DNA of 64,000 nt from Pseudoscleropodium purum (taxonomy: Eukaryota > Streptophyta > Bryopsida > Hypnales > Brachytheciaceae): the NCBI GenBank assembly GCA_963969395.1, contig OZ017796.1, forward strand, positions 13,270,501 to 13,334,500, read 5' to 3'. Below the pieces are notes generated by a model. That model was not told the origin of the DNA. It did no database searches and worked only from the letters and a program-made list of their open reading frames with translations. The position numbers were made by a program, and so were the translations under genes. Positions 5,099 through 59,149 of the stretch are shown one piece after another (the first letter of the stretch is position 1; every line of letters starts with the position of its first letter).

Positions 5099-5372
5099 CA
5101 GGGTTGACGAATGTCAACGTCCGCCCCAAAATAGTGTCTGTTTTCCGGACGCTAGCGGACGCAGCGTCCCAACCGCCGTCGGAAAGTGGACGGGCGGGGC
5201 GGATGGCCCAAGGCGGACGCTCAGATTGTGCGGACCAGATCAGTCCGCACGTCGATCGGATGGCCGTAATCGGGCGGACGGGCGGACGCTGCGTCTGCCG
5301 GGACGCAAATGTCAGCGGACGCTGCGGACACAGCGTCCGCGTTTGGACGTCCCGGACGTCGTGTCAACCCTG
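5099..5372. mobile_element. Short non-autonomous hAT-like element (copy 1), 8-bp target duplication
   Basis: A 274-bp GC-rich insert in AT-rich DNA. The ends are CAGGGTTGACGA and TCGTGTCAACCCTG, forming a short terminal inverted repeat. It is flanked by an exact 8-bp direct repeat, TTGTTAGA (5091-5098 and 5373-5380). The 8-bp duplication and CAGGG end fit the hAT superfamily. The interior is packed with GCGGACGC/GTCCGC motifs, including a near-palindrome (GCGGACGCTG...CAGCGTCCGC) close to the right end. Both ends match those of the 10.7 kb element at 38731-49411, so it is probably a deletion derivative mobilised in trans. Confidence 0.9.
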
Positions 5373-22881: not shown

Positions 22882-23146
22882 CAGGGTTGACGAATCTCTA
22901 CGTCCACCCAAAAAAAGCGTCCATAACCCGGACGCACGGACGTTGGCGGACGCAGTGTCCCGACCGCTGTCGGAAAGCGGACGGCCCGAGGCGGACGCCC
23001 AGATCGTGCGGACCACATCAGTCCGCGTGTCGATCGGACGGCCATAATTGGGTAGACGGGTGGACGGATGCTGCGTCCGCCGGGACCGCGAATGTTAGCG
23101 GACGCTGCGAACACAGCATTTGTGTCCGGACGTCGTGTCAACCCTG
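22882..23146. mobile_element. Short non-autonomous hAT-like element (copy 2), 8-bp target duplication
   Basis: 265 bp, same ends as copy 1. Exact 8-bp flanking repeat ATAGTGGG (22874-22881 and 23147-23154). The middle contains GCGGACCACATCAGTCCGCG and the next bases GTGTCGATCGGACGG. The reverse complement of this block recurs at about 45805-45845, in front of the plus-strand gene of the 10.7 kb element. Confidence 0.92.
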
Positions 23147-23317
23147 ATAGTGGGTACCTTTCCTCACTATTCACTCAAAAAATGGCTCCCCTTCACTCTC
23201 GTAGTGGGAGACAATATCTATCAAGATGACTACAGAATCAATTCAAATTCTCCACTCTTGAAATGCAAAATAGAGCTAAATTAGTCCAAGCAAAAATGAA
23301 AACAGAGCAGTTTGAAT

Positions 23318-23636
23318 CATGGTTGTCATAACGGGCTAGTTAGGGTCATCGGACGGGACAGATGGACGGACGGACAAACCGGACCGGACAGACGGACGAT
23401 TCGGATAGCTTTAATTTTGTAACTTGTGCAATTTTGCGGAATGACACATCACCTCGGAATGCGAAATTCAGGGCCCTGACGATCTCGTCCGCACCTAGCA
23501 TGTTCTTTAATCCACATGGCATCCACGTGGCCTATTTTTCTGTTATCAAAAAGTCAACTATGTGTTGATTGTATTGGACGGGCAGGACCTCTAACGGACG
23601 GGCAAACCGGACGTCCGTCCTCTATGACAACTCATG
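23318..23636. mobile_element. Unclassified short inverted-repeat element B, intact copy
   Basis: 319 bp running from CATGGTTGTCATAACGG to CTATGACAACTCATG, an imperfect inverted repeat of about 13 bp. The interior has CGGACG-type motifs next to each end and an AT-rich centre. A second copy in reverse orientation is split by the 10.7 kb element (38468-38730 and 49420-49444). The target duplication is unclear: CATG flanks both ends and may belong to the element. Superfamily not assigned. Confidence 0.75.
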
Positions 23637-34700: not shown

Positions 34701-34881
34701 ATTGCCAAAATTACCCAGGGAACTTTAAGGAAAGTAGCCAGGATTCTTTAATGGAGCGATGACAGTTGCCAAACACTTCCATCCATAAAAACTGAAATGA
34801 AGCTTGTTTGTGACCACAGTGAATCTATGTGAATTTATGTGTTGCCACATGGCCTACCACCCAAAAAAACAAAAAAGGGAC
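28717..34881. mobile_element. Large AT-rich insertion in copy B, about 6.2 kb, no gene
   Basis: Bounded by TGTTGTACACT (28706-28716) and TGTTGCACACT (34882-34892), read as a 9-11 bp target duplication with one change. The termini show weak inverted similarity: 'TTTTTTTTAGGTG...GGGGCAACAACATA' at the left, and the reverse complement of 'TATG.GTTGCCAC...CACCCAAAAAAA' at the right. This would suit an old Mutator-like element. Inside are a CA-rich stretch near 30000, a region rich in CAATTG and CGAT motifs (29150-30350) and dispersed repeats (33010-33310). No ORF is credible. Confidence 0.55.
29985..30060 (+). repeat. CA-rich simple repeat
   Basis: Imperfect runs of CACACAAACACTCACACACAA on the plus strand. 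Simple-sequence DNA with no coding meaning. Confidence 0.9.
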
Positions 34882-35141
34882 TGTTGCACACTTTCAATGC
34901 ATACTTGTAACATTGAATTTGTCTGTGCTGCGCAGGCCTTGTACTCACCAACACTATTGTCAATCAGCTAATTACAAAAAACATTGCTATGGTTGTTTTA
35001 GGCTTGCTGCGTGTGCCCTTAACAGAGAATAAAACCTAGCCTGAGGCAGGTGCAAAGCATATTATGGACTACACAACCTTGAGGATTTGGGATCTCTCTA
35101 GCTCCAGCACAAAATGTGAACAAGTGAAAACACTAGTCCCA

Positions 35142-35932
35142 CTAAAATATTGAAAGCGGGACTATAAGACCGAGTGCATTCCTCGAGAAAACATGTGGAT
35201 ACCTGCCCATGAGACCCCATTCGTCCTGGCAGTGCGCACCAAAACGAAATTCATAGTAGGCCGTCTTCAATTTTGAAGCCTCTTTATCAATTTCCTGAAA
35301 GTCCAACATATCAAAAACTTTGGTTCAGTAGACCAGTGAAAACTTCGACACCAGAAAGAAAAAACAGAACAGAATTATAATGTAGTAATGGCCGTGATCT
35401 AAACATGACTATGAAGATCACTTCAAACGTGATGAAATTTTACCTCAATTTCCTGCATGTTGATTTTCTTCTTCTCTTCTAAATCACTGATCTCCCTGAA
35501 TTTCGTGAGTGCAACAACGACGGCCATAAAAGTCGCAAAGAACGAAAGTAGGACGGGACTCCAAAGATGCTCGCACTCCAGCCTATTGGTTGTTGCAACC
35601 GCTGCCCAAACTACCCCCTCGAATACACTATACAAACCGACCAATTGGTACACTTCATTCATGATACTCCTCATCTCTGATTTTACCTCCAGTATTTCAT
35701 GCCGAGCTGATTCTTTTTTCTCTTTCCATATCGTCATTGCTGCGCGAGCGATCCTTTTCTTTCGCTTGACTTCAGGGAGATCATTTTCCCCAGCAGATGT
35801 GTTCACCGTAAACATGATTTCTTTCTCCAGATCCCCCATTTCTTTTCTACACTTACCCTGGTCCGCACACTGCCCGGTTTGGGGATGATTCCCGGTCTGT
35901 AAGTTTACCTCGGGATTCCCATCGACGTCCAT
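35142..35932 (-). CDS. Putative membrane protein, copy B, truncated third membrane segment
   Basis: Same gene as copies A and C. Exons 35932-35444 (donor GAG|GTAAAA) and 35294-35142 (acceptor TTTCAG); 213 residues. The N-terminal charged half has VKRKKRIARAAMTIWKEKKE. The core MRSIMNEVYQLVGLYSVFEG and CEHLWSP are kept. The end differs: after NALGLIVPLSIF a TAG (35144-35142) stops translation where copies A and C read on through TAALVFS..HILCW, because the bases encoding TAA are altered or deleted. The third hydrophobic segment is therefore cut after about 12 residues. Exon 2 upstream of it also diverges strongly from A. It may be a non-functional copy or a shortened isoform. Confidence 0.6.
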
Positions 35933-37323
35933 ATTGACGACCTCTGCATCCAACCACAACCACACTTGGTTCGGTAAAGTGGTAAACGAGAGCTCGCGAG
36001 TTGCTGGGTACGTGAGTTTGTACAACTGGTATCACACCAAAGCTTGTGTCCCGTGACTCAAAAGCTAACATCTAAGTGCTCCATCCGTGATAACGAAAGA
36101 TGTTCATACATGGATTAGTTATGCATTCTTCATTCGTAGCACCAGTACACCATTCTAGACAATATGCGAATGCAGATTAACAGGAGAAACGTACAAGTTC
36201 TGATTTATGCTCGTCTGCGTTCTGCTCTATATGAGGTTTCTTCAATCGTGTTCACACGGGAGTTTAAGAGTTTACCATTTCAATTGGACCATTACCACCT
36301 CCTAATGAAGTGGTAACCTCTATTTCATTACCATGATGGTAAACTCTTTAAAATCTTCTGTGGCTATCCCGCACAGCCTCAGAAAACAAGCTGCACTTGC
36401 CACATGATCATTACTGTCATAAGCTTCCTGGATCGACTACGGATATGAAAGATGCACACCAGGATCGGAAAAACTGATTCGCAAACTCTAAACTACTTAC
36501 ATCTTAACCACAGTTGCTCATAAAACTGGAAGAACCTAGCTTGGAGACCAAAAGATTCCAGAACGGATAACAAATGGACCAGCAACTATCCATCGATTCA
36601 TCAAACCCTCCGTTACCAAATAGGAAGCCTGGGGAGCAAGGACAATACCCCCAGTGCATCAAATACTCTCATTAGTTGCCCTTCTCGTTACCTAGGATAA
36701 AATTTGAGATTTCAAAATCTCAATTTCGAAATTATTATAGATACTCAAAAGTATCTTAGTCATCGATTTCGCATTGAAGGATCAATTACGGGTTGTTAAG
36801 ACTTTTTAAGCTTGTATGTCGACGAAGGAAGGGGTAACTCGAGATTTCATTCAGTCTACCCCGGCACTTTCCAGGCCAGCTTCCCCGGCGCTCTGTGCAA
36901 GTCTAGCTGGTGATCGATTAAACATGCATTGCAAAGCCAGCTTGCCAAACATTGTAGCAGAAGTGTGAAAGATACGTATCACTACTGCGAACCCCGTCGC
37001 TTTTCATTCCTTGAAATAACAACAAAACGTGGAATGAGTGAAAAAAGTCACCAAGAACAAATCGTGCGACCGATTTTGATACTAGATCATCTGACACAGG
37101 TCCGGTTCTCCGGAATGAATAACGACGGGTTCGTTCAACAGAGTTAAGGGACTCACAAGGTAGGCCCGGCTAGCTCTGGAGTTGGTTATCAAACGCACAG
37201 TAGCTGCAGTTCACCACCCAGTCCTGCACGCAACAGAACTTCGCGGTTAGTTTCCAATGTCGTGTTTGGAGCAGCAAGTGCACACAAATGAAGGCAGGTA
37301 CTCGATCGAGGCTCTTGCAAACC

Positions 37324-38467: not shown

Positions 38468-38730
38468 CATGGTTGTCATAGTGGACGGATGTCCGGTTCA
38501 CCCGTCCATTAGAGGTCCTGCCCGTCCGATACAATCAACACATAGTTGACTTTCTGATAATGGAAAAATAGGCCACGTGGATGCCATGTGGATTAAGGAA
38601 CATGTTGGGCGCGGACGAGATCATCCACGCCCTGGATTTCACATTCCGAGGTGACGTGTCATTCTGCAAAATTGCACAAGTTACAAAATTAAAGCCGTCC
38701 AGACCATCAGTCCGTCCGGTCTGATGGCCC
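38468..38730. mobile_element. Element B, second copy, left part (split by the 10.7 kb element)
   Basis: Reverse-orientation match to 23318-23636: it begins CATGGTTGTCATAGTGG and contains the same 'AGGTCCTGCCCGTCC', 'CCACGTGGATGCCATGTGG' and 'TTGCACAAGTTACAAAATTAAAG' blocks. It breaks off at GATGGCCC (38723-38730), the target duplication of the large element. The missing end of about 25 bases is at 49420-49444. Confidence 0.85.
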
Positions 38731-39192
38731 CAGGGTTGACGAATCTCAACGTCCGCCCCAAAATAGCGTCCATTTTCCGGACGTCCGGACGCTAGCAGAC
38801 GCAGCATCCCTCCTGCCGTTGGAAGGCGGACGAGCAGGGCGGGGCGGACAGACCAGACGGGGCGGATGGATAGGGCGGACGGGGCGAACTTTGCATTGCC
38901 ATTAGTCATTAGAAAATTTTATATTGTTATGTAATTTGAATGTTACACAATCAGAAATGAATGCATCCACGTAAAATAAGATGTACATATAAAAATATTT
39001 TTATACGCAAATGAAAATATAGCATCTTTATATATAAATATATATGTATAAACAAAATACATGAAAACATAGTTCCAATATTACTATTGAATCCTATACG
39101 ATCTTTTTAAGATCTAAATCTTTTACATTCTTTTTTATTTTTAAACAATGAAAGGACCATTGTTTTTAAAAAAACAAAATTCTCTTCAAATC

Positions 39193-42100
39193 CTACTTCC
39201 CACCGAATGGACCACTACCTTCTCCCAAAACAAAAGGAAAATCTGCTGTACCGAGCAGTTTAGCAAATGATTGACAAGTTGACCGTTGTTGACTTGGACA
39301 GACTATTCGCCCTCCAGATTGAACTTCGATGTCCACCTTATGAAATTGTTTCTTGGTTTCCGGAGAGAAGTCATCGTCCTCTTCACGCTTCCTTTTTTGT
39401 TTTCTTTTCGGTGATAAATTGACTTCATCTACCTTCAAGGTTCTCAAGTTACTCTCCACATGATCTACCATCGCTTGAACAACTTCATCATCTCCTTTCC
39501 CTTGCCATACTGTGAGGCAGTCTCCATCCAATAGGAAAGCCTTCCAATGCCCTATAATATTGCCAATGCGCCTATCAAATGCTGCTGCCACATCTACAGA
39601 TGAATGTCCTGTGCTTGTTTGTCCATTTGTATCGTAAACAGCACGAACTTTTGCAGCCTCTTCCAACTTCGACAATAGAAGGGCCCTACCTACGAGGGTG
39701 TGGTCATATGCCTTATACTGCTCATCGAACTCTTTTCCATGGTTCACCTCCACCCAACTGTCTTCTGGTCCTCTCTCCACTTTTTTATTTGGAAAACGAA
39801 ATAACTTTTTGTGTTGCAAGCTCCAATGTCCGCCTATGTTGCGACAAAACATTTCACGGGCCGCATCATCTACGATTCCTCGAGCCCGCAATTCCACCTT
39901 TCTATTGTGAGTCATCCACACATCCAAATCCAATGGTTGCTGAGATTCCTTGTACAAATCATGCCTCTGTTCATTTGCATTCCACCGGATTGGCTTCCCC
40001 CAATGTTCATAATTTTGAAATTTGTATGGCGCTTGATCAAGAGGAAGATTCCAACGATTGTACTCGTGGCTTGGAGGCATAGCTTCCAAGATACCAAACA
40101 TTTTGTAGAACCTAGCACTTAGTGGACTACGACACTCAGCACACACCGAACGAATGAGTGATGCTTTCACAATGCAAGTGACATGGAAAATGTGGCGACA
40201 TTGGCCCATGGTTACCGCACCTTCTGGTCCGAAGAGGCTTTAGTAAAGGCTACAACAACCATCCAAGATTGAAGAGGCTGGATCACAAGCATATACCACT
40301 CGCTTGTCTTTCACATTGATGTGTGCTGAAAGTGTGTTGTAAGGGACTCATCCTTCCTCTACTTCCAAGGCCCAATTGATGGATGGAGCTTGGTCCTTCT
40401 TTGTGTGGTTTAACCGCTCAAACATGGCATCCATGTCTCCCTAACATGTGATCTCCGTATATCCCTTTGAAGGGTGTTGGTCAAACATAGTCTTGAATCA
40501 ACTCAAAGAGCTTTGAATGGCATTGCAATTTTCATTCGACTCCATTGCCAATGTTTGAAGACCTGCCATTGCTCGAGATACTACAGAGGGTCTATCTTGG
40601 AGTCTTTGTACCCATGCTAACCATCGAGACTCCAAGCCGCTAGATGGCATAAACTTCTCTAAATCCAAGCACAATTGCAATCGATTCAACTCGGATTCAA
40701 CAATTTCTTTTGCTTCAATTGCCTCCTCCCATTTATGCTTCAACTCTTCAAAGTCACAACTCTCCGTTTGCGTCTCCGCATTCACGTAAACGGATGAAAG
40801 TTTTTCCATTGATGGTTGTTGTGTCGCTTTTAACATGCTCATGTCTTGACTTTCTTGTACATTCACAATGGCAGGGTTGTCGTTTGCTTCGGCCTTATCA
40901 AAAGGAAGAGAGAGCTTATCTTCACTCTTTTGAGTCTCTTGATTGTCTCCGAGTACAATCACTGGTGAGATTGCAACCTCACTTGGATTCTTGGAGGTCC
41001 CTTGTAATTCTGCAATCCGTTTACGTATCTTCATCAACTCCTCCATTTGCCTCGATGATTGTTGATTTAAATGTTCAACCTCACTCTCCGAAGTCTTTAA
41101 TTTCAACTCCAACACTTTGCACCTTGCTTCCACTCCTTCAAGGTCAGCAATTTTCTTCTCATATTCCACCAATTGTAATATGTGAACATCTCTTTCTTCG
41201 AAAAGTGGTCCGAAAGTCTTCGTGAGATTCTGAAATGCTATAGCACCTTTCAACATCTCTAGTGCCATGAAAGAAAACTCCTTGGCCAAATTCATAAAAG
41301 TCGGAGCAACTTTCGCTAAAAATTTTCGCTCGTACTTGATACAGCTTTCTACATCGTCATCTAGAAAGCTGTATCAAGTATATGTGCAACATTCTTTGGA
41401 TCTGCAAGTGAACTCATTGAAACAGTAGTAGCACCATCATCGGGGTTAGACGATCTGCCTATTTCTTCATGAAGGTTAGAAAACTGAACCGAGAGCTTCA
41501 AAAGATTTTCCAATTGTTTTGGATTGGATATGTCTTGCAAGGTTCGATGTAGAGGACTCGGCAATGACGTTGCAAACGGAAACTCCTCCGCCCGCTTTTT
41601 ACGCTTGGAACTCCATAATGAGGATATATTATCAAACTCCACGCCTTGTCCACGAGGCGTATGTACTTTGTCTTCTAAACTTAACGCTGGACTAGATTCA
41701 GCGCCTTGATGCATAGGCAAAGATTTGTAGACCAAACTATCAAAACAACTGTTGGCTATCAGACTATCAATTGTAGCATTAGCCTTTGTCACTTTCTCCG
41801 CCAAGACTTCGTCTACTTTACTTTTTGAAGTTTTCCCGCGTTCCGTGCAAACATTGCCTTCGTTTACAGACTCCGTTTGTGTTTGTGCCGCAACATTTGG
41901 TATAAAGGTCAAACGCGTTGGAGTTGTGGAAAAGACTTCACCCTCTTGCACCTCTACATCTTTTTCCACATCTTTCTCCACATTTTTCGAAGAGCTTTCA
42001 TTGATTGTTTTTGTTGGAGATTGTACAGACCGTAATTCTTCAACATTTGAGGCTTTCTCCTCACCATCTGTTTTCACCTCTATAGTATTTTTTAATACTT

Positions 42101-42611
42101 TTTCTGTTTCTCCCTCTGAATTGTACAAGTCGGGAATGTCTTTTTGATTGGCTTCAAGTAAAAATAGGCAAGCTGCTGTTGTCGAAAACGTGCCCCAATC
42201 GATTTTACGCTCTAATATAAGTTCGGCGTAAACCATATACGCCACGCTATAATTAATATAGCCTTTGCTTCTGGGTTTGTTTCCAAATAGAACACGCCAC
42301 AGTTCCGCAGACCGATGGACAAAATGTTTGTTTTTGCAAGTCCATGGTTTTCAACAAAAATCCCATGTATGACTCTTGTACGGCTCTTGAGGCTACAACT
42401 TGTCAATGTGGTACATTTTAATATAGGTCCTGCACATTTTTTATGTCCAATATTCCACATCTTCATTTTCCCACCCGCTCTCTGCTTTAATTGTAGGGTC
42501 ATTTAAAATGTCAAGCCGAAGGTCATGTGTAGCCTCCTTCACTTTGCTTTTTTTCTTGGCTTCGCTTCCCGGAGTCACCCCATCCATATTTCGATCACCT
42601 TTGCCGTTCAT
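39193..42611 (-). pseudogene. CxxC-domain / coiled-coil / RING protein gene of the giant element, decayed
   Basis: Read as one gene of about 1,100 codons from ATG 42611 to the TGA-type end at 39193. Segments: (1) 42611-41361, one frame with a TAA at 42443 and two more stops before 42245. It contains MCRTYIKMYHIDKL and, later, NYSVAYMVYAELIL, both resembling the plus-strand gene. (2) A Ser/Glu/Lys-rich middle. (3) A shift of one base at about 41350. (4) 41350-40498, predicted coiled coil (EYEKKIADLEGVEARCKVLE). (5) A 290-bp stretch with four in-frame stops. (6) 40209-39193, the second half of a RING finger (CRHIFHVTCI...CAECRSPLS), then 300 residues ending basic and acidic (KRKQKRKREEDDD). The first RING ligands may be the CC of LDGCC, just upstream. 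RING proteins usually act as ubiquitin ligases. Long open frames argue for recent loss. Confidence 0.65.
41333..41380. repeat. Perfect 19-bp inverted repeat at a frameshift
   Basis: TACTTGATACAGCTTTCTA (41333-41351), a 10-base loop, then its exact reverse complement (41362-41380). It sits where the reading frame of the RING gene shifts by one base, so an inverted duplication or hairpin-driven error may have broken the gene. In the cell it would form a strong cruciform or RNA hairpin. Confidence 0.9.
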
Positions 42612-42823
42612 GATTGTCAATTGGATTCAATAACCAATTGAAGTGAATAAAAAAATCTCACGTGATAGTCAAAAGTGATGGCATCAACCGTAATACAGTA
42701 ACAAAAGATAGAGGACCCCAACTCTCCACCCCGTAGGAGCAACTAGCGCATAAAGCAATAGTAGCACATCCAACTTGGCACCGAAGGAGAATTGAAGTGA
42801 GAAGAAATGAAAGTCACTCCACC

Positions 42824-42829
42824 CTTATA
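42824..42829 (-). promoter_or_regulatory. TATA box of the RING gene
   Basis: TATAAG followed by GG on the minus strand, about 215 bp upstream of ATG 42611. It is preceded by a 190-bp block dense in GCGGACG motifs (42833-43012). Confidence 0.6.
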
Positions 42830-43171
42830 GCCGTCCGCCGCTGGACCTGCCCCGGACTGTGCGAAGCGGCCCCGAATCTCGCGTCCGCTTCGGCAGCAGA
42901 CGCGTCATCCGCCCGTCGCCCCGTCCGACCGCCGCGTCTGCCCGGACTGTCAGCACTGTCCGCCTTCCGACGCCGTCCGCGCTTTGGACATGCTGACCGC
43001 CCCACTTAAACACTAAGCGTCGACGGCGGCCACCCAACTATTCATTGGTGCATCCTATGAGGCCATTATTATTCAAAAAGAGCGGTAACATTTCAAAAAT
43101 AAAACAACCTAATAATCACTGCTAAATGAGGATCAATGGAATTGATTTATCATTTTTTTTTAAAAAAAAAT

Positions 43172-43208
43172 GTAAACCCTAAACCCTATACCCTAATTAC
43201 CCTAAACC
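43172..43208 (-). promoter_or_regulatory. Telomere-like box (AAACCCTAAACCCTA) upstream of the RING gene
   Basis: Plus strand shows AAACCCTAAACCCTATACCC, then CTAATTACCCTAAACC. This is three to four units of the plant telomere motif; in plants short copies (telo-boxes) act in promoters. It lies about 560 bp upstream of the RING gene start. Confidence 0.6.
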
Positions 43209-43460
43209 TTTTCTTTTCTCCCCTAAATTGTTTTACAAATGAGGGGAATGTGATTAAGTTCAATATGTTTGGATTATTTACTTATATTATCCTTCTAAAT
43301 AGGTTTTGAGCAAATCTGAAGATGGTGGGGATTTTTTTAAAGTTCATTAGGAAATCAAATGTTTTGCAAAAATAATCAATTCCTTTTTCATCGTAAACAA
43401 ATGAAATTTTTTAAAAAGGTCCCAATACATAATTAGAATAATAGTTTAATGGATTTCAAC

Positions 43461-43739
43461 CAGGGTTGACGAATGTCAACGTCCGCTCCAAAATAGCGTC
43501 CGTTTTCCAGACATCCGGACGCACGGACGCTAGTGGACGCAGCGTCCCGACCACCGTCGGAAAGCGGACGGGCGGGGCGGGGCGGACGCCCAAATCGTGC
43601 GGACCAGATTAGTCCGTGCGTCGATCGGACGGCCGTAATCGGGCGGACGGGGGACAGGCGGACGCTGCGTCTGCCGGGACGCGAATGTCAGCGGACGCTG
43701 CAAACACAGCATCTGTGTCCGGACGTCGTGTCAACCCTG
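43461..43739. mobile_element. Short non-autonomous hAT-like element (copy 3), nested in the giant element
   Basis: 279 bp, same ends as the other short copies. Exact 8-bp flanking repeat ATTTCAAC (43453-43460 and 43740-43747). It inserted between the two divergent promoters of the large element that shares its termini. Confidence 0.93.
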
Positions 43740-43747
43740 ATTTCAAC

Positions 43748-45723
43748 CTCATGATATTTAATGAAAGGTTTTGATTTCTAATTAGAAGTGCATCACGATC
43801 TTCAAATGAACATCGAGTCTTTCATATTTTTTAATGAAATTTTGATTAGATTTGAAAACAAAGAAAAATAATCAATGTTTTAACTTTCAAATCATGTATG
43901 GCTATATTTTTCCTTAAAAACATAGAAAAATTCGTTACTTGAGTTGGTTGAGTAGAATACATTATACACTTATACATGTGCTATATTTATTTTGAAGGAT
44001 AATTCCAATATTCTTATTTCAGATGTTTTTAAATATTAATTTTAAAAAAGAGGGTTCATTGTTAAAAGATCTAAAAAATTGACAAACATAATTTCTATTA
44101 TAAATAGGAATTGAATTCAGAATTCGAATTTTGAAATGATTCAAATGAACAAGATATTGATTATAAAATATTTCTTCGTTTGAGTTTTCAAAATGAATTC
44201 ACGAAACAATTGCAAACTTTTGAACTTAGGTATATGGTATTGTTTTTGGTTTGTACTTTGTAGAGTATAATACTTCAATTTTAATCCTAAATAAATGAAA
44301 AAACTCCTCATGAATGAAGTGTTTCTATGTATTGCACAAAAATTTCTATCAATTACTATGATAATTAAATACATTGTTACATTTCATAAAATATTCTACA
44401 TAGAAAGAAAAAATCATTTCAGTTTTCAATCATGATAAACGATGTCTTTTACTCTTTCTGTTATATGTTCATTTTGTATAACGTGTACATTGTACAATCT
44501 TTGAGAGCAAGGTAGTTCATTTTTGACTCTCATTGAAATAGAAAATATATTTGTGTTTGGATTGTGAAATCATTATGTATTCTACAGTCTTGCAAGAATG
44601 CATCTTGCTCCTTCCTTTGAATCCTTTTGATATTTTCTTTTTTTTCTTTGCTTTCTATCTCGTAGGGCTCTCATTCTCTTATTCTCTTCATTTGACCAGG
44701 CTATTTGGCTTGGCTTTTAGTTTTTTTTTCTTTTTAATGCAATGGTTTATGCATATATTATAAAAAATATATATTATTTATTTAAAATTAATATATTGAT
44801 GAACAAACGCATAAAGGCATTCAATGCTTTCACATTTAAAGTTATAAATCTATCATAAATCACTCTTGCAAATTTGAATGATTGAATCGAAAATTTGAAA
44901 ATGTAATTACAAGAGCTTTCAATTCAATCAATTGCATAAATCATAAATGTTGAAATGCAACTCGTATGAGTTTAGCATCTATGAAAATTAATTCATGCCA
45001 TTCACATGCAATTTTCCAATTTAATAAAATGCAATTGAGTACTTCAATTTCTTTCCCTTCAATTCTCCAAGTAACATTCACTTCATATCTTTCTCTATTT
45101 GTTTATCTATTTTTTGACAACAAATGGAGAAACCATCTTTGTCTATATTTGCACATGCACTCTTATTTGATTGATGAAGAATAGATCTATAAAATATATA
45201 ATCATTGATTTGTTCATGTTGATTTATCTAATATATATTATGTATGTATGTATGTGTATATATATATATCATTAAAAGAGTATGGAAGACAAGATTGACA
45301 AATTGTGTTCAAATGTTGTTGATTTTGAAATGATTTAGTACTATATCATTTATAAAAATATTATAATAGTGTTATGTTATAATATTCCTAAAACAATTGC
45401 AACAAATATTAAAATACATGCTAAGTTAGGTTTGTTAGCCTACCAATTGTTCATTAATAGACATAATTGAGTAGCCCCCTTAAATAAAACACTCAATATC
45501 TAATATCTTACAATCCAAATGGTGGATTTGTCTAAAATTTTTTCCACATCTTTTCCAACTAATTTACTACAAGATCCTACGGTTACATATGCTCCAAAGT
45601 ATTTTTCTTCTAAGACTTGGTATTTGCACTACTAATGGCAGTTTTGAAGTGCTTATAGTAAAAAGAACTTTAGGGGTTAAACATCTATACCATGAGATTT
45701 TGAAAAAAGAACAATTTGCTTCA
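43748..45723. other. AT-rich spacer between the two gene modules of the giant element
   Basis: Very AT-rich with no credible ORF on either strand; a transposase gene was specifically looked for here and not seen. It includes an AT/TGTA microsatellite near 45230-45270. Confidence 0.55.
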
Positions 45724-45725
45724 TT

Positions 45726-45739
45726 GGGTTTAGGGTTTA
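45726..45739 (+). promoter_or_regulatory. Telomere-like box (GGGTTTAGGGTTTA) upstream of the plus-strand gene
   Basis: Two units of the plant telomere motif, oriented toward the plus-strand gene. A CGGACG/GTCCG-rich block (45745-45905) and a TATA-like run follow, the same order as on the minus side. Confidence 0.55.
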
Positions 45740-45880
45740 AAGTGAGCCGTCCACCCTGTCCGCCCAATCCGGCATCCGCTTTGTCCGCCCCGATACCCGT
45801 CCGCTTCGGTATGGCCGTCCGATTGACACGCGAACTGATGTGGTCCGGATGATTTGAACGTTCGCCTTTGGGCGTCCACA

Positions 45881-45889
45881 TATATATAT
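45881..45889 (+). promoter_or_regulatory. TATA-like sequence before the plus-strand gene
   Basis: TATATATAT followed by GGGGAGG, about 225 bp upstream of ATG 46113. The distance is close to that of the minus-strand TATA box (about 215 bp). Confidence 0.5.
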
Positions 45890-46112
45890 GGGGAGGCGGA
45901 CGGCTCATTCCGAACAATCGTTCTCTTTTGGAGTGGGCGGACCAGTGCTTTGGAAGCTCTGCGCGCCCCTTCTGCTTTGAGTGAACGATTGTTGTGAGAT
46001 TGTTACAAATTTTCACAAAGTTCACGCTTGTAAAATTTTAATTAATTAATTAAATCAAAATTTTGGTTCTTAAGCTTTCTAATTGTTTCATTCTCTTTGC
46101 TTCAGCTTCATC

Positions 46113-47462
46113 ATGCTGAAAGATAGAACATCCAAAAAAAGTAGTCGAAAGGGAAGACCTCAATTGTTCGATTGGGATGCTGAAGCCGATCCATTGTGCG
46201 TGGGTGAACCGGGATGGGAAGAGGAACCAACAAGAGTGTAGGATTGCTCAATGTGCAAGAAGTATGTGAAAATGACTCACATTCAAAAACTTTGGCGACG
46301 TGAACGTGTAAAATACCAAGCGCCACGTTGGGAAGGACAAATGTCTACGTGCCAAAGTAAGCACTTTAAACAACGATACACACAAGTGCATCAAGTTCTT
46401 GGCATTAAAAGCGCCAAACCAAATATAATGAATTATAATGTTATGGCAATGGTTTGGGCAGAGATTGTACTCCACAAGGACGTGGACTGGCGTACCGCTA
46501 AAGGTCGCAATGTGGAGAACTATACGCGCATGGATGCCGTTATAGATACACAGTGGAGGGGCGCAAACGATTGCATGCTAGAGTGGTCCAATCGAGATTA
46601 TCTACAACAACCTTCAATTGTTCTACAAGATGCTGAAGATGCATGGACAGATGACGATGATGACAATGATATGCAAACGCCTGTCACATTTGGAGTTAAG
46701 CACGAGCAGATAGAAGAACGAGAACGAATTGAATTCGAACAACAAATGCAAGAGGCAACACGCAGAAGCCTTCAAGATCGTGGACGGCAAGATAGGCATG
46801 GTGGGTCCTACGGATGTGAACATGGAATGCGAGAATCTGAACAAGGAAGAGGTGGTTCATACTCTGGTTACGATCCTCAAAATAGATATGAAGGTGAAAG
46901 AGGGAGCTATGGATCCACGCATTATGGTGGTTCAAGTGTAGTTGATTCTCGTTATAGCACTCCCCTTGAAATTGGCTCTCAAAGTGGAGCAGATAGTTAT
47001 GGCAACACGCACTATGGTAGGTCTAGTGGATCTGGTTCATATTATACGACGCCCACTCAAGTGGGCTCCGAAGGTAGTGGAGGAAGTCATGTAACCCCGC
47101 AGCATAGTTGCTCTTTTCACGGAAGCGCCCAATACTATCCGGGATCAACTAGAAGTGATTCATACGGGCATCATGGGGCCTCTTATTATGGGGCTTCAAA
47201 TGAAAGAGGATCAAAGCCAACTACTCCGGTTCCTCCTCCCACTTTTGGAGGTTCAAGCTATGGACAAGGAGATGCACCGAGTGGATATCACGGAAACTAC
47301 GGAGGTGGTCCGTTCATTGGAGTACAAAGAAGAGGCAGCAGTCAACAATTTGAGTCCGATTCAGATTCCGATAATAAAAACATGCAAGTATATAGTGAGC
47401 ATGTATTTGTTGAATTTTCTCATTTTTATTCTCACGACAAGCATAGAGCACTAGATTGGTAG
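46113..47462 (+). CDS. CxxC-domain, Gly/Ser/Tyr-rich protein of the giant element; one in-frame stop
   Basis: ATG 46113 opens a frame that runs to TGA/TAG-type end 47460-47462 with a single TAG at 46239. Without that stop it would be about 448 residues; from the next ATG (46251) it is 403. After the stop come CSMCKKYVKMTHIQKL, a later C-x3-KHF, then NYNVMAMVWAEIVLHKDVDW. These parallel the minus-strand RING gene (MCRTYIKMYHIDKL, KHF, NYSVAYMVYAELILERKIDW). Residues from about 175 are Asp-rich (DDDDDND), then Gln/Arg-rich. The last 200 are low-complexity Gly/Ser/Tyr with repeats such as SYGxTHYGGSS. A donor-like CAA|GTATAT at 47393 could splice into the kinase region downstream. Function unknown; a zinc-binding module is plausible. 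Confidence 0.55.
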
Positions 47463-47682
47463 AAGTAGTACAAAATTTTAAATGAATAGAACAATTTTGA
47501 ACAACAATTTTGTTCACTTTTTCAAAAAGTATTGTGTAATAGTGTACACCAAGTATGTATGTAGGCAAACATATTGTTGAAAACATCATTGTATTATTTT
47601 ATAATAGCATTGATGTATAAGGCTATAAGCAACTTTGATAATAATAATAAGTGATTCTAAAAGCGAACTTATTTAGGGGGTG

Positions 47683-48762
47683 ATGTGCTCCATTCGCCAA
47701 AAAGCACAATCAAGTTGGTTCAATTGCTTGGTGGAAAAGCAATGATGGAGTTGCTAAAGCGGAAAGAATCAAACGGCACCTCATAGCACTTCCAAATATA
47801 GCACGCGTGATTGCTGTTGATGATAGAACGATGAGAGGTAGATATGCAACGATTCGAAAGGTCCGTATTGAAGGATGTTCAGTAATATTTTCTTATTAGG
47901 AGTTTGCGGTAAAGAAATCCATTCACTACCAAACTCGACCCGATCTTGCAAAGTTAGAACATCAAAACGAATCAATGGCTGTTCGAATTCCACACGCGGG
48001 TGTGATACGGTTTGCTGCGGTGCACGGAACGACGTGTGAAGGTTATGCGTATTGGTGGAATGGTGGAACTCTTCGACAAATGTTGAATATGGATAAGGAC
48101 TTTCCAGACAACATTCAAATCCGTTTGATGTATACAAATCCAACCGAAGAGGAGGTTGTAAAAGCTCACCATTTAGGGCGATATCGAAAGAAGCGCACGG
48201 AGTTGACATGGGCGTTTATGCATATAATGTATGCAGCACATCTTACTGGACATTTGCACAATGATCTTTCTCCGGACAACATCTTGTTGCATTTTCCAAA
48301 AGATGAGTCACGTGTGTACATTGAAGTTTGCGATTGGGGCATGATCACCTTAGCTTCTGAGCCATGAAGTCTTTGTACACATTCACATCAACAGATGAGA
48401 TAAAACAAACTTTGCAGAGGAGATGGTGGGTGGATCCACGTATTGCATATTTACATAAAGCAGGTGCAGATGTGGAAGTCATTCCGATGTATTCACGTAA
48501 GTCGGAAGAGTATACCATTCGAAAAATTGCTCGGCGGATGAATGAAATCAACATGTCAGAGGCGTATTTCAACTTGCTACTTAAAACACCTAGTGTGACA
48601 CAATTTGCCTTTCATGACTTTGCAAAAGTGTTTTATGCTTACTTGAAGCGCATTTCTTCAAAGACTGACGATGAAAATACTAGTTTGGCCTATGTGATTA
48701 CGCGATTTTTTAATACATATTGTTGGCCGATGCCAGATGAACATTTCCGCCATTTATATTAA
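47683..48762 (+). pseudogene. Protein-kinase-like domain of the giant element, decayed
   Basis: Kinase landmarks appear in order. A glycine-loop-like GRYATIRKV is followed by a TAG at 47897-47899. EFAVKKS has the ATP-binding Lys. VIRFAAVHG and a hinge YAYWWNGGTLRQML follow. The catalytic loop is HNDLSPDNILLHF (HxDLxxxN intact, non-RD type). CDWGMIT stands for DFG. A one-base shift near 48365 then leads into a second frame (48364-48762) with the C-lobe (RRWWVDPRIAYLH, VITRFFNTY). Catalytic Asp and Asn are preserved, but the frame is broken twice. It follows the CxxC gene by 220 bp in the same direction and may be its last exon. The family within kinases is not recognised. Confidence 0.65.
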
Positions 48763-48953
48763 ATTGATAGTACAGAAGTAGTAGTTGAATAGGTTATATA
48801 GGCATTAAAAATTAGTTTAGAAATATAGAGTTGGAATGAAAAAAATTATATGTGCAATTAGCCAAATGTGCACAATGTATAGTATTCTATATTAAATTCA
48901 ATACATTTTGCTCATATTGATTATGTTTGTATTTGTGTTGATCTTGATTTTTT

Positions 48954-48957
<4 letters not shown>

Positions 48958-49014
<57 letters not shown>
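48958..49014. repeat. (AT)n microsatellite
   Basis: About 28 uninterrupted AT dinucleotides near the right end of the giant element. Confidence 0.97.
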
Positions 49015-49017
<3 letters not shown>

Positions 49018-49199
49018 AAGTCATAAACTTTTTTAGTTTGCCTTCTGAAAATGAATTGGAATTTTTTCATAGTTTCAAGACTATCATGGAGTCATGGTCA
49101 AACTTTATAATCTTTCAACTTATAAGAGACATTGTTTTAATAACAAATTGCGAACCATTGCACTTCATTTAACATTTAATTGTTTAAAGATTAAGGGAG

Positions 49200-49411
49200 T
49201 AACCATGAGGCAGTTTGGGTAGGGCGGTCGGGGGAAATAGGGCCATCAGGGGAAATAAGGCCGTCAAAGCGGACAGGGCGGATGGGCAGGGCGGGCGGAT
49301 GGGGTGACAGGCGGATGGGGCGGTCCCGGCGGACGCTGTGTCCGCCGGGACCGCGAATGTCAGCGGACGTTGCGGACACAGCGTCCGCGTCCGGACGTCG
49401 TATCAACCCTG
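49200..49411. repeat. Subterminal CGGACG-rich region, right end of the giant element
   Basis: Dense GGGCGG and GCGGACG motifs, ending in palindromic GCGGACG...GACACAGCGTCCGC and the terminal CAACCCTG. The left end (38731-38890) is built in the same way. Such subterminal clusters are typical transposase-binding regions in hAT elements; binding here is inference. Confidence 0.7.
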
Positions 49412-49419
49412 GATGACCC

Positions 49420-49465: not shown

Positions 49466-52400
49466 AACATGCCTTCCAATTGTTCCAAGACACTTTGGTT
49501 CTTTTTGTCTCACAAAGACCCTCCTACAAATATTGAATAATGTAATGTACATACAACTATTTAATTTATCCACTTCAACATTGTGAGATGTATTTTTCTA
49601 AACTATTTCTAGCACTTGAGTGTAAACACAAGGCATGAAGAAATGACCAAAAACAATTGTTTGAAATACAACCAAGGCATGGACTCCCAATATGAACATA
49701 GTCTAAATATCAACACTTCAACAAAGACCATCAACATTCAAAGATACAATAAAGCCATGAGAAGAGGTCATTGAACAAGTGTCATATGAAATCACCAATT
49801 GGGTGTTCATTACATTCATTTTGACATCATCTTGTGCTTGACTTGGTGGTGACCCTGCTAACAAATATTCTTGGCAATTTACTCAAATGAACTGTGGACC
49901 TCTCTCATTTGAACGCACACGCTCTGCTACCAATTCAGCAGACCTTTTCTTCCACTCGCAGAGAAACGCACAATATTTTATTCTCCGAATTCCTAAAGGA
50001 TTCTGAGTGAGTATTTGCAGTAATGCGTGCCCATCCGTTAGATCACATTTGGCTACAAGGAACAGCAAGATCATGTTGTTGCACACTTGCGGTGCATACT
50101 TGTAACATTGAATTGGTCTGTGTTGCTCAGGCCTTGTACTGTACTTACCAACACTATTGCCAATCAGCTAAATAGAAAAAACATTGCTATAGCACGATAG
50201 TTTTGAGGCTTGCTACATGTGCGCTAAACAGAGAATGAAATCTAGCCTGAGGCAGATGCAAAGCATATTGTGGACCACACAACCTTGAGGATTCGGGATC
50301 TCTCTAGCTCCAGCACAAAATGTGAACAACTGAAAACTCTAGCGCCGCTGTAAATATTGTAAGCGGGACTGTAAGACCGAGTGCATTCCTCCAGAAAGGA
50401 GGACGTCTGCGTATGTAACGCCGTCTCGTCATTCCCATTTCACAGTCTCTATCAAAATCAAAGTCAGCATATCCGGTTTCCCTCAAAGTCAAAACCCATC
50501 CCACAAGTACCTGAGAGTCCGACAAATCATAAATTTTGGTTCAGCAGACAAGTGAAAACTTCGACAGCAGAATGAAAAAACAGGACAGAATTCTGACTAT
50601 GAACATTGACCGTGCTCTGAACATGACTATGAAGTTCACTTCAAACGTGATGAAATCTTACCCGAATGACCGTTCTGTTGCTTGCTTTCGTCTCTTCTAA
50701 ATCACGAATCTCACCAAACTTCTTGAATGCAACAACGACGAGCATAAAATACGCAAAGAGGGAAAGACTGACGGGACTCCAAAGATGCTGGCACTCCAGC
50801 CTACTGGATGTTGCAACCGCTGCCAAAACCACCCCCTCAAATACACTATACAAACTGACCAAATTGTACACCTCATTCATGATACTCCTCATCTCCGATC
50901 CACATTGCAGTAACCGTTGCTCAAATGTTTCTATTTTCTCTTTCCACGACGTCAGTGCTGCGCGAGCCATCCTTTTCTTTCGCTTGACTTCAGTGGAATC
51001 ATTTTCCTCATCAGCATACAGTTCCACCAGAAGAAAGATTTCTCTCTCCACCTCCCCCATTTCTCTCTCACTCACACCTTGCACCTCGACTCTCTCACCC
51101 TCCTTCCCGCTGTTGGGATGATTCCTCGTCTCCAAGTTTCCCTCGGGAATCCCATCGGCGGCCATATTGACGACCTCTGTATCCAACCACAACCACACTT
51201 GGTTCGGTAAACGAGAGCTCGCGAGTTGCTGGGCACGTGAGTTTGTACAACTGGTATCACACCAAAGCTTGTGTCCCGTGACTCGATCAAAAGCTAACAT
51301 CTAAGTGCTCCATCCGTGATAACGAAAAATTCTCATACATGGATTAGTTCTGCATTCTTCATTCATAGCACACAAGTACACCATGCTAGACAAAATGCGA
51401 ATGCAGGTTAACAAGAAGAGACGTACAAGTCCTGACTTACGCGAGTATGCATTCTGCTCTATATTAGGTTTCTTCAATCGTGGTCACAAGGGAGTTTTAA
51501 GAGCTTACTAGGGAAGATGAAACGGAGTTTACAATCTCAATTGGGTCATTACCACCTCCTAATGAAGTCGTAACCTCTATTTCATTACCATGATGGTAAA
51601 CTCTTAAAACTCTTTTGTGGTTGACTTCCTCTATCCCGCACAACCTCAGAAAGCAAGCTGCACTTGTTACACGAACATTACTATCGTAAGTTTCCTGATC
51701 TACTAAGGTATATATATGCAAGATGCACACCAGGAAAAACTGATTCACAAACTCTAACCTACTTACATCTTAAAACCGCAGTTGCACATAAAACTGGAAG
51801 AACCTAGCTTGGAGACCAAGCGATTCCAAAACAGACAGCAAATGGACCATCAACTATCCATCGATTCATCAAATCCTCCGCTACAAAGTAGGAAGCCTGG
51901 GGGGCAAGGACAATACCCCCAGTACATCAAATACTCTCATTAGTTGCCCTCCTCGTTACCTAGGATAAAAATCTTAACTTCAAAATTCTAATAGATACTC
52001 AAAACTCTCTTATTCATCGATTTCGCGTGGAAGGAGTACGGGTTGTTAAGACTTTCTAAGTTAGCATGTCGACGAAGGAAGGGGTAACTCGAGATTTCAT
52101 TCAGTCTACCCCGGCACTTTCCAGGCCAGCTTCCCCGGCGCTCTGTGCAAGTCTAGCTGGTGATCGATTAAACATGCATTGCAAAGCCAGTTTGCCAAAC
52201 ATTGTAGCAGAGGTTTGAAAGATACAGAGTTAATGAACTCACAAGGTACTACGCGCTACTAGATCTGGAGTTGGTTATCAAATGTACACCAACTGAATTC
52301 CGGAACCAACTGCAATTCACCACCCAGTCCGACACGCAGTTGAACTTCGCGATTAGTTCCCAGTGTCGTGTTTCGGCAGCAGCACGCGTACACAAATGAA

Positions 52401-52945: not shown

Positions 52946-53756
52946 GTCAAGAAGAAATGAAACCCTTGAACAACGCAATTGACTTTTAATGTAGAGGTAT
53001 CTATTTCGGATAACTTAACCATATAATAAGGATGGGTTGGTCTCCACAGAAATCATCCTTTTTGATATAGTGTGCATCATCTATTTTAAGAAAACCAAAA
53101 GCACTCATTCAAGGACAAGTTACTTTAGAAGGTCTTCGTTTTTTGCATAAAATTCCAAGTATGAACAATGGCACTTTTGTCCTACATGCAAAGATTTTTT
53201 GTAATTCATCGAACACTTAGTATTCATAGCAACATTAAAGGGTTCAACATTTCAACCTCTAGAATATAGGAAATTCATTGAGAAATCAAGCTCAATGTGT
53301 GCAAATATAAAGATGAGGAAGAATGCAAAAAAATGAGTTTTTTCTCCAAAAATGAATATTACTACTCCTTTTGTTTTTGAAAATGATCCATGTTCCTTTG
53401 TGTTTTACAAACAAAACACTAGGCTATTTCAAAAACAAATGTAGTATTCAATATAAATGTGGATTTTTCATTAGGACCCATTCTAGTCTCAAAGACTCAC
53501 CTATTGCGGTTAGCTTTGGGATCTTTCTTCCTTTAAGGGATGGAAGAGAGATGAGTGAATGAAAAGGGTCCAAATAGAGAATCTTTTTCAATGAACAGTG
53601 TATCCAACTATTGTTGACAATAGGTCACCTTATAAAGCCATCGTAGGGAGGTTGTCAAAAATAGATACTTCTAACTTATTGTCCAATGAATAATAGAAAA
53701 TCCTTTGTAAGGCGAAAGTGTAGGTATATATTCATGGGATTTTGTAACATCAGATC
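52946..53756. other. Gene-free AT-rich stretch
   Basis: Between copy C and the first Tc1/mariner relic. No supported gene; it contains fragments of the dispersed repeat also seen near 2700 and 57900. Confidence 0.5.
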
Positions 53757-54627
53757 CAATAATTTTACAAATTTTGTTCTTGTAAGTTTCAACAAAAAGT
53801 TCGTGAACTTCTTGAAACTCTAGTATACTAAAAAAAGGATAGATTTTCAAATTACAAATTACATTGGAATCATAGTGAAGAATACTTGATCATCCTAACA
53901 AATATATACAAATGATTCAAAATCATACAACAATTTGGAACTTTCCTATACACTATCTATCATTTGGTGTTGCCACCTTTTGCTAAAATTATAGCTTGCA
54001 TTATGTTGGGCATATTAAAAATGAGCATTTGCAATTGCTTTAAAGATACTTGATCCCATACTTCTTCAATTGTTTGTATCATTTTTTGCTTGTTCTTTGG
54101 CCTTCTTGGCAAGGTTAATAAATTGGAACATCCGGGGCAAATTAACATCCAAACATTCGTCTGTAGGCGGATGGCAAAATTAAATTTCTTTTTGCTCCCC
54201 TCCCCCCCCCCACCTTCCAATGGCGCCATCCGCCCTATCCGCCAAATAGATCTAGGCCATTAGATCTTGCTGACAAAGCTGGTGGATGGAGCAAAAAAAA
54301 AAATTTCAAATGTCAATGGACACTACAAACCCAACGTTCGTGTCTAGACGTCCTATCAACCCTGCTTCTTGGGTGTTGCAACAAAATTTTGACTATCTTC
54401 CAAGGGTTTAATGGTGAATTAAGAGGTCAAACTAATTTCTTCATACCATGAGTTTGCCTCTACTTCTCTAGAAGTTTTTATATGATGTTAAATTATTCTT
54501 CACTAGAATTCTAATACAATTTGTGGTTTGGAAATTTGCCATATTTTTAGAATGCTAGAGCTTCTTGAAGTTCGTGAATTTTTTATTAGTTGAATCTACT
54601 TGAGAAGAAAAATTATTAAGATTATTA
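53757..54627 (-). mobile_element. Tc1/mariner-type relic 1, containing a nested hAT-like element
   Basis: The ends CAATAATTTTACAAATTTTG and ...TTATTAAGATTATT form long inverted repeats of about 75 bp (with AGTTCGTGAACTTCTTGAA). It is an inverted relative of 58427-59034. It encodes, on the minus strand (53960-54100), the last 40 or so residues of a transposase: QTIEEVWDQVSLKQLQ, then MPNIMQAIILAKGGNTK. This matches the C-terminus typical of Tc1-like DDE transposases (...SMPRR.QAVI.AKGGHT). It is interrupted at 54110-54364. Confidence 0.75.
54110..54364. mobile_element. Old, degenerate hAT-like short element (copy 4)
   Basis: 255 bp. The ends are CAAGGTTAATAAA (decayed from CAGGGTTGACGAA) and GACGTCCTATCAACCCTG. 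Exact 8-bp flanking repeat CTTCTTGG (54102-54109 and 54365-54372). The sister element at 58427-59034 lacks it, giving an empty site ('CACCGGAAAAGGCCAAAG' at about 58679). Many CpG sites of the fresher copies are gone, so it is older. Confidence 0.88.
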
Positions 54628-58426: not shown

Positions 58427-59034
58427 CAATAATCTTAAGAATTTTCTTTCCAAATAGATTCAACTAATCAAAAGTTCATGAACTTCAAGAAGCTCTAGCA
58501 TCCTAAAAAAAAGGACAAATTTTCAAACTACAAATTGCATTGGAATTCCAATGAAGAATAATTGAATATCATATAAAAACTTCTAGAGAAGTAAAGACAA
58601 ATTCATGGTATGAAGAAGTTAGTTCGACCTCCTAATTCACCATTGAACTCTTGGAAAATAGTCAAAAATTTGTTGCAACACCGGAAAAGGCCAAAGAACA
58701 AGAAAAACATTATACAAACAATTGAAGAAGTATAGGATCAAGTATCTTTAAAGCAATTGAAAATGCTCATTTCTAATATGCCCAACATAATGCAAGCTAT
58801 GATTTTAATAGAAGGTGGCAACACCAAATGGTAGATAGTGTACAGGAAAGATCCAAATTGTTGTATGATTTTGAATCACTTGTATATATTTGTTAGGATG
58901 ATCAAGTATTTTTCACTATGATTCCAATGTAATTTGTGGTTTGAAAATCTATCCATTTTTGAGTATGCTAGAGTTTCAAGAGGTTCACGAACTTTTTGTT
59001 GAAACTGACTGGAACAAAATTTGTAAGATTATTG
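58427..59034 (+). mobile_element. Tc1/mariner-type relic 2, 608 bp
   Basis: Inverted-repeat ends of about 75 bp, starting CAATAATCTTAAGAATTTTC and ending AAATTTGTAAGATTATTG. On the plus strand 58694-58834 encodes the transposase C-terminus, QTIEEV-stop-DQVSLKQLK, then MPNIMQAMILIEGGNTKW and TAG. The TAG at 58733-58735 replaces the Trp of relic 1. Most of the transposase is missing, so this is a deleted element. Confidence 0.75.
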
Positions 59035-59149
59035 GCTCTTGACAGTACAACTATCGACCTACCAGTGTACCTTACAATTTCGGATCCAGCAGTCCGAATA
59101 ACAAAGCATTCACGAATCACGATAACACATTACAATCCACTGAATCCAG

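What the first reader, a model, noticed from the sequence alone, without database searches (positions are those of the whole stretch)
38731..49411. 10.7 kb hAT-like element carrying a RING/kinase gene pair and no visible transposase
Seen: CAGGGTTGAC...CAACCCTG ends, a 7/8 target duplication (GATGGCCC / GATGACCC), and insertion into a known short element. Inside are two divergent modules encoding a RING protein and a kinase-like protein. Family knowledge: CAGGG ends and 8-bp duplications are hAT traits, but hAT elements normally encode a single RNase-H-fold transposase. A cargo of ubiquitin-ligase-like and kinase-like proteins would be unusual and could be an undescribed element lineage.
Basis: partly seen in the sequence, partly recalled or inferred. 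Interest (0 to 1): 0.9.

Follow-up and report, generated by a model that had tools for sequence, protein, structure and literature searches.

The report
Kinase- and RING-carrying partner hAT transposon
This is a decayed copy of a high-copy plant jumping-gene family that comes in two versions, one carrying the jumping enzyme plus a protein kinase and one carrying a RING protein, a second zinc-binding-type protein and the same kinase, which suggests a selfish element that may bring along tools for handling its host.

Summary
Window 38731-49411 is one transposed unit with hAT-type ends and a 7/8 TSD; a related copy of its target repeat lies unfilled in the same window. Nine long copies were read; all have these ends with at most one changed base per end, and 8 of 9 have a 7/8 or 8/8 TSD. 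The missing transposase is in a sibling, 'type I' (9.5 kb): same ends, backbone and kinase, but a hAT transposase in the RING gene's slot and no second gene. Of the 85 best kinase places, 31 have a hAT match and 11 the second gene in the expected position, none both (lists capped). So it is most likely a non-autonomous hAT mobilised in trans, not a transposase-free new lineage. The accessory genes have relatives at 27-93% identity, two named from the moss Ceratodon. CGTCCGCC arrays lie at the ends and before each gene, as in VANC transposons. Accessory functions are inferred, not shown.

The parts
38723..38730 (.). left target-site duplication GATGGCCC
   Evidence: related empty target
38731..38880 (+). 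left terminus (CAGGGTTGAC...) with CGTCCGCC-type subterminal DNA; homologous to MITE and type I left ends
39193..42611 (-). gene G1, 1,138 residues when read through: N-terminal domain shared with G2, long helical region (low-confidence model), RING-H2, conserved C-terminal part; broken here by stops and a frameshift near 41367
42820..43050 (.). GC-rich CGTCCGCC-type cluster before G1 (the same slot precedes the transposase in type I)
   Evidence: by inspection; counted in C, E, F, H
43461..43739 (.). nested 279-bp MITE of the same family, TSD ATTTCAAC (43453-43460 / 43740-43747), absent at this point from A-F and H
45745..45950 (.). GC-rich CGTCCGCC-type cluster before G2; its inverse makes up the middle of the MITE
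46113..47372 (+). gene G2, about 420 codons: N-terminal domain shared with G1, then Gly/Ser-rich low-confidence tail; one in-frame stop here and the natural stop lost
47646..47650 (.). 5-bp junction where 1.1-1.5 kb found in A-F (kinase promoter and first ~135 codons) is missing here
47651..48762 (+). gene G3, protein kinase, codons ~136-505 only, frameshifted
49230..49411 (+). right terminus with CGTCCGCC-type DNA, ending ATCAACCCTG
49412..49419 (.). right target-site duplication GATGACCC

Best explanation
The window element is a dead copy of a long non-autonomous hAT transposon ('type II'). It is moved in trans by the transposase of a sibling ('type I') with the same termini, the same 2.5-kb intergenic backbone and the same kinase gene. 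The two differ in a swappable left module (hAT transposase in type I, RING protein G1 in type II) and in the presence of G2. SHOWN: the shared ends, TSDs, co-linearity, geometry, module swap and relatives of the gene families. INFERRED: mobilisation in trans; that the CGTCCGCC arrays at the ends and before each gene are the binding sites of an element protein (transposase or the G1/G2 N-terminal domain); that G1 (RING) and the kinase act on host or element proteins to relieve silencing or regulate transposition, as VANC does and as is thought for some other transposon accessory proteins (recalled).
For: Seven type II copies (window, A-F) run from the same left to the same right terminus; six of the seven have 7/8 or 8/8 TSDs. 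Two type I copies, H and I, have 8/8 TSDs and match each other at 93-97% in three blocks that cover their whole length. H vs C: left ends 87% over 156 bp, then H 151-4298 (transposase) in place of C 156-4322 (G1), then 94% over 2.5 kb, kinase region 94% over 2.1 kb, right ends 78% over 218 bp. Transposase: DUF659 and hAT dimerisation above cut-off. Of the 85 best kinase places, 31 have a hAT place on the opposite strand in the divergent position within 15 kb (same-strand control 2) and 11 have G2 in tandem at 736-1,264 bp (opposite-strand control 0), none both; random placement of the kinases against the PF05699 and G2 lists gave means of 0.36 and 0.20, maximum 3 each in 500 runs. A kinase match is present in 29 of 30 G2 loci, on the G2 strand in all 29, and a transposase match in 0 of 30. 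No stop in the matched stretch in 35 of the 85 listed kinases and 19 of the 63 listed transposases, the latter with open frames up to 1,155 aa. Kinase residues K223, E242, D340, N345, D363 are invariant in 24 aligned sequences. dN/dS below 1 in all 22 pairs computed. GTCCG/CGGAC: 68 of 73, 36 of 40, 82 of 87 and 62 of 68 sites (C, H, E, F) lie in the ends and pre-gene clusters.
Against: The hAT, G2, kinase and transposase lists hold only the best-scoring places (150 of 664, 102 of 1,305, 85 of 1,553, 63 of 1,107 first-look candidates), so 'none both' is a sample; 52 of the 85 kinases had neither neighbour in the first pair of lists. Four of 150 hAT places lie within 15 kb of a listed G2 place, one of them only 2 kb away on the same strand, and were not inspected. 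Two same-strand hAT neighbours turned up in the control, and one of the 31 distances (6,588 bp) is off the cluster. Copy E has no TSD (1/8). H and I themselves carry a broken transposase frame. The motif clusters were chosen by eye after and counted in 4 of 9 copies. No transposition, binding or expression was tested. In the element's own copies the kinase and RING matches stay below Pfam cut-offs. The whole-genome search for G1 did not complete.
Confidence: 0.78

Rival explanations
1. A MITE split by a 10-kb nested insert, or two unrelated short elements flanking host genes.
For: The outer 100-200 bp at each end look like the two halves of the 279-bp MITE.
Against: Nine long copies at different places have the same termini, 8 of 9 with TSDs directly outside the ends; the middle of the MITEs is itself a piece of the long element, the inverted G2 promoter, matched in 7 of 7 type II copies; a related unfilled target exists.
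Confidence: 0.02
2. Pack-type gene capture: a non-autonomous hAT picked up ordinary host RING and kinase genes as passengers without function for the element.
For: Many plant DNA transposons carry captured gene pieces (recalled). Type II lacks the transposase. All three window genes are broken. dN/dS reaches 0.94 in one G2 pair.
Against: Whole genes, each behind its own CGTCCGCC-type cluster, not fragments; the kinase is in both element types; kinase relatives 25-72% identical to it in the alignment have all five catalytic residues; G1 and G2 share a domain (hhalign E 2.5e-40); a G1 relative and a G2 relative are both listed with a longest contig of 17,649 bp from the same source, which I take to be one contig; no kinase relative is listed with that length. 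No search for a single-copy host progenitor was possible.
Confidence: 0.12
3. Type II is autonomous: G1 or G2 is itself a new kind of transposase, and the hAT in type I is a later intruder.
For: First-look candidate counts for G2 (1,305) are not below those for the transposase (1,107). G1 is long and most of it has no known domain. G2's domain has no PDB match.
Against: CAGGG ends and 8-bp TSDs are what a hAT transposase makes (recalled); a hAT transposase lies between these very ends in two copies read; G1 shows no similarity to it (hhalign probability 0.2%) and no nuclease family.
Confidence: 0.05

Closest known systems
hAT superfamily (Ac/Ds-like autonomous and non-autonomous pairs)
   Same: CAGGG... 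terminal inverted repeats, 8-bp TSDs, DUF659 + dimerisation-domain transposase in type I; long non-autonomous partner; short-motif-rich subterminal DNA as in Ac (Ac features recalled)
   Different: A protein kinase gene in both element types; the non-autonomous partner is not a mere deletion derivative but has a RING gene in the transposase's place and a further gene, G2
VANDAL / VANC anti-silencing MULEs (Nat Commun 2017, PMC5735166; abstract and passages seen)
   Same: Short motif accumulated in terminal and other non-coding regions of a multi-gene plant transposon, with variable repeat number
   Different: hAT not MULE; 8-bp TSD; different motif; sequence relation between VANC and G1/G2 was not tested; no methylation data
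TET-carrying and alpha-kinase-carrying fungal DNA transposons (Biology 2025, PMC12730594; passages seen)
   Same: Accessory enzyme genes on DNA transposons: an alpha-kinase gene in TET-carrying IS3EU, a TET gene in some hAT; the TET genes are proposed to help escape silencing
   Different: Fungi; alpha-kinase is another kinase class (recalled); no swap between transposase and RING modules in the passages read
Lanisha (proposed EnSpm-like superfamily; known here only through PMC12730594; link to Ceratodon recalled)
   Same: Cut-and-paste transposon, from moss (recalled)
   Different: EnSpm-like transposase in a group with 2-5 bp TSDs; here hAT transposase and 8 bp

Membership tests
hAT superfamily | short TIR beginning CAGGG or similar | tested here: met
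   9 of 9 long copies read, at most one changed base in each 10-base end
hAT superfamily | 8-bp TSD | tested here: met
   8 of 9 copies at 7/8 or 8/8; copy E 1/8
hAT superfamily | hAT transposase encoded by the window element or its type II siblings | tested here: not met
   no hAT family in nine window ORFs; the transposase query matches none of the 7 type II copies and none of 30 G2 loci
hAT superfamily | hAT transposase encoded by elements with the same ends | tested here: met
   type I copies H and I: DUF659 and Dimer_Tnp_hAT above cut-off
hAT superfamily | ends of type II used by that transposase | not testable with these tools
   needs an excision or binding assay
RING-type E3 ligase (G1) | C3H2C3 RING ligands | tested here: met
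   copy A has all eight by inspection; PF17123 E 5.4e-6 but 26.4 bits against a cut-off of 27; 8 of 9 relatives carry a precomputed RING-type domain, P0044 and P0049 exceed cut-offs, P0045 does not; the window copy has lost one cysteine
RING-type E3 ligase (G1) | ubiquitin transfer | not testable with these tools
   -
Protein kinase (G3) | beta3 Lys, alphaC Glu, catalytic Asp/Asn, D of DFG | tested here: met
   K223, E242, D340, N345, D363 invariant in 24 sequences; roles recalled; Pfam Pkinase below cut-off in the element's copies
VANC-type anti-silencing system | protein binds motif and removes methylation | not testable with these tools
   only the motif layout was looked at
VANDAL (MULE) | MULE transposase and 9-bp TSD (recalled) | tested here: not met
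   hAT transposase, 8-bp TSD
Lanisha / CMC clade | EnSpm-like transposase, 2-5 bp TSD | tested here: not met
KDZ (Zisupton and kin, 8-bp TSD) | KDZ transposase | tested here: not met
   no such Pfam family at E <= 1 in the window ORFs or the type I ORFs of H, nor at E <= 0.1 in one transposase ORF of I; that Pfam holds a KDZ model is recalled

The most novel reading that the evidence does not exclude
A divided selfish system: type I supplies the transposase, type II supplies a RING ligase and a sequence-specific zinc-domain pair (G1/G2) that recognises CGTCCGCC arrays at the ends and promoters of both types, and both carry a dedicated kinase. Together they would form a transposon-encoded anti-silencing and signalling module shared in trans on a hAT, a counterpart of VANC that evolved independently.
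Probability: 0.3. Interest if true: 0.82.

Novelty: new variant of a known kind. Interest (0 to 1): 0.62.

Why it matters
hAT elements are normally one-gene parasites (recalled). A high-copy hAT family that keeps a catalytically intact-looking kinase in both versions, and has a RING protein in the transposase's place in the other, is an unusual case of a transposon with a conserved accessory toolkit. It makes a testable setting for how transposons evade silencing or control copy number, and for how an autonomous element and its non-autonomous partner divide labour. One kinase relative (named KC19_VG055000, Ceratodon; the VG prefix I take to mean the V sex chromosome) stands for 126 sequences, so such genes could be counted as host kinases and E3 ligases in moss genomes when they are transposon genes.

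Tried and rejected

Not obtained: whole-genome places of G1. The request did not complete (with 30 loci; with none).

Mended on recheck: the missing stretch at 47648 is 1.1-1.5 kb (E and F have more than I first wrote), the right ends of H and C match at 78%, B lacks the RING part, and the derivation of the MITEs from type II was tested.
Full report
WHAT IS THERE. Window 38731-49411 begins CAGGGTTGAC and ends ATCAACCCTG, flanked by GATGGCCC and GATGACCC. The end 10-mer is found 6,720 times in the 313-Mb host assembly against 264 for the pattern read backwards. The insertion split a short repeat whose other copy in the window (about 23317-23636, reverse strand) carries one GATGACCC at the corresponding point and no insert; 31 bp of that copy between the two matched stretches are unmatched. 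A 279-bp MITE of the same family lies inside at 43461-43739 with its own 8-bp TSD. It is absent at that point from A and B, C-F and H, so it is a later arrival. Two further MITEs of the family in the window, at 5099 and 22882, also have perfect 8-bp TSDs.

OTHER COPIES. Two of the first eight end matches, taken only because they came first on contig 1, turned out to lie on long copies. Six more type II copies were read: A and B (contig 1), C (contig 45), D (contig 41), E (contig 47), F (contig 43). C-F were chosen from the best G2 hits, so they are not a random sample. Lengths: 15.8, 15.7, 11.8, 14.8, 11.9 and 11.6 kb. A, B and D are enlarged by insertions; in B these replace part of the G1 gene, RING included. 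TSDs: A 7/8, B, C, D, F 8/8, E 1/8, window 7/8.

GENES OF TYPE II. G1 (minus strand): one long reading frame of about 1,100 codons with no evident intron, broken in the window copy. It has nine relatives (40-93% identity), 8 of them with a precomputed RING-type domain. G2 (plus strand): about 420 codons; 43 relatives (37-70% identity), none with a Pfam domain. The N-terminal ~150 residues of the two families are homologous (hhalign E 2.5e-40 over 151 columns; the G2 relative P0001 matches the elements' G1 at 35-39%), with C47, C79 and H83 of G2 invariant and H55 nearly so in the 29 sequences aligned, a likely zinc site (inference). G3 (plus strand): about 500 codons; 50 relatives (27-71% identity), two of them named as Ceratodon purpureus, a moss. 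In the 24 sequences aligned, including the element's own from H, five residues expected of an active kinase are invariant (roles recalled). In the window, G3 lacks its promoter and first ~135 codons at 47646-47650; A and B show the missing DNA, and C-F have 1.1-1.5 kb there too.

THE TRANSPOSASE. PF05699 gave 150 scored hAT places out of 664 candidates. One search prints end matches only for the first 2.95 Mb of contig 1; the two hAT places listed in that stretch both lie between paired ends about 9.55 kb apart. One was fetched: element H, contig 1 2680608-2690152, 9,545 bp, TSD 8/8. A second, I, contig 45 3575260-3584755, 9,496 bp, TSD TTACTTAG 8/8, matches H at 93-97% in three blocks. Both carry an open 505-aa kinase and a hAT transposase, interrupted once in H and twice in I. 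Against C, the left ends match (87% over 156 bp), H 151-4298 with the transposase stands in place of C 156-4322 with G1, the next 2.5 kb match at 94%, G2 is missing, the kinase region matches at 94% over 2.1 kb and the right end at 78% over 218 bp. The transposase has the same orientation and the same upstream cluster as G1. Of 63 transposase places listed, 19 have no stop in the matched 702 aa, with open frames up to 1,155 aa.

HOW GENERAL. Kinase: 1,553 candidates, 85 scored. Transposase: 1,107, 63 scored. G2: 1,305, 102 scored. Only scored places are printed. Among the 85 kinases, 22 have a PF05699 place 5.4-5.9 kb away in divergent orientation and 11 have G2 736-1,264 bp upstream in tandem; random placement gives 0.36 and 0.20 on average, 3 at most. 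With the transposase list added, 31 of 85 have a hAT (distances 4.7-5.9 kb, one 6.6 kb), 11 have G2, 0 both; controls with the other strand give 2 and 0. In the first comparison 52 of 85 had neither neighbour in the capped lists. Four of 150 hAT places lie within 15 kb of a listed G2 place and were not looked into. Thirty G2 loci with 1.5-kb flanks, the window's own among them: a kinase match in 29, always on the G2 strand, and no transposase match in any; L020 is the miss.

REPEATED MOTIF. GTCCG/CGGAC is concentrated at both ends and in the DNA before each gene: 12+13+16+18+9 of 73 in C, 10+10+8+8 of 40 in H; E 82 of 87; F 62 of 68 (the other five copies were not counted). Mononucleotide shuffles of the same cluster DNA give 3-7 on average, 15 at most. 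The clusters were outlined by eye, so the ratio is not an independent test. The commonest 8-mer shared by the five kinds of cluster is CGTCCGCC. Repeat number before the kinase varies (18 in 500 bp of C, 32 in 700 bp of E). The middles of the three window MITEs match the inverted G2-promoter DNA of 7 of 7 type II copies (74-94%, E 2e-9 or better), but H and I only weakly (26-71 bp, E 4e-5 or worse), so the MITEs probably derive from type II. VANC21 of Arabidopsis binds a short motif in non-coding regions of its own transposon, termini included, in tandem repeats that vary between copies (PMC5735166, abstract and passages). The layout here is alike; nothing shows the function to be.

SELECTION. 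Nei-Gojobori estimates by my own script: kinase 0.33-0.61 (6 pairs of B, C, E, H), G2 0.27-0.94 (15 pairs of A, C, D, E, F, window), G1 0.51 (C against E only); copies with stops were kept and stop codons skipped. Such values fit lineages that are selected while active and decay after insertion, but do not prove it.

HOW IT MOST LIKELY WORKS. Shown: two element types share ends, backbone and kinase and differ by a transposase/RING module swap and by G2. Inferred, likely: type I transposase moves both. Inferred, less certain: a protein of the system reads the CGTCCGCC arrays at ends and promoters, coupling expression and mobility; the RING protein and kinase modify host or element proteins to permit expression or transposition. 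The G1/G2 domain is my candidate reader, the transposase the alternative.

VERDICT. Real, not a chance pairing, not a transposase-free new lineage; a hAT family with an unusual accessory gene set split over two partner elements. A new variant of a known kind.

Noticed in passing
L009/L010 (copy A), L045 (copy D), L012 (copy B): A nested ~3.3-kb DNA transposon with TIR TGTCGCAGC and 5-bp TSDs (CTAAC in A, GGTCC in D) encodes a 545-aa protein (L012:6374-8008, minus) with no Pfam family above cut-off; B holds three pieces of it in inverted and direct arrangement.
   Followed up: partly
genome places: Of 17 pairs of listed places closer than 30 kb (8 kinase, 6 transposase, 3 G2), 16 are inverted, some near-identical; some pairs of different genes may be the same event. 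Local inverted duplication or an assembly fold-back artefact.
   Followed up: no
window about 18763-21492, 34878-36975, 49724-52225: A tract repeated about every 15 kb, 62-97% identical piece by piece; one copy begins just right of the element.
   Followed up: no
window 43461-43739; 5099-5372; 22882-23146: MITEs of this family are three-piece constructs: left end, inverted G2-promoter piece, right end.
   Followed up: yes
P0054: A kinase relative is labelled as from a Bacilli metagenome bin on a 2.9-kb contig; likely plant contamination of the bin.
   Followed up: no
window 53752-54611 and 58442-59039: Long inverted repeat arms (353, 184 and 80 nt, 85-93%) 3.8-4.6 kb apart; a right-end match of this family at 54355-54364 adjoins one arm.
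   Followed up: no
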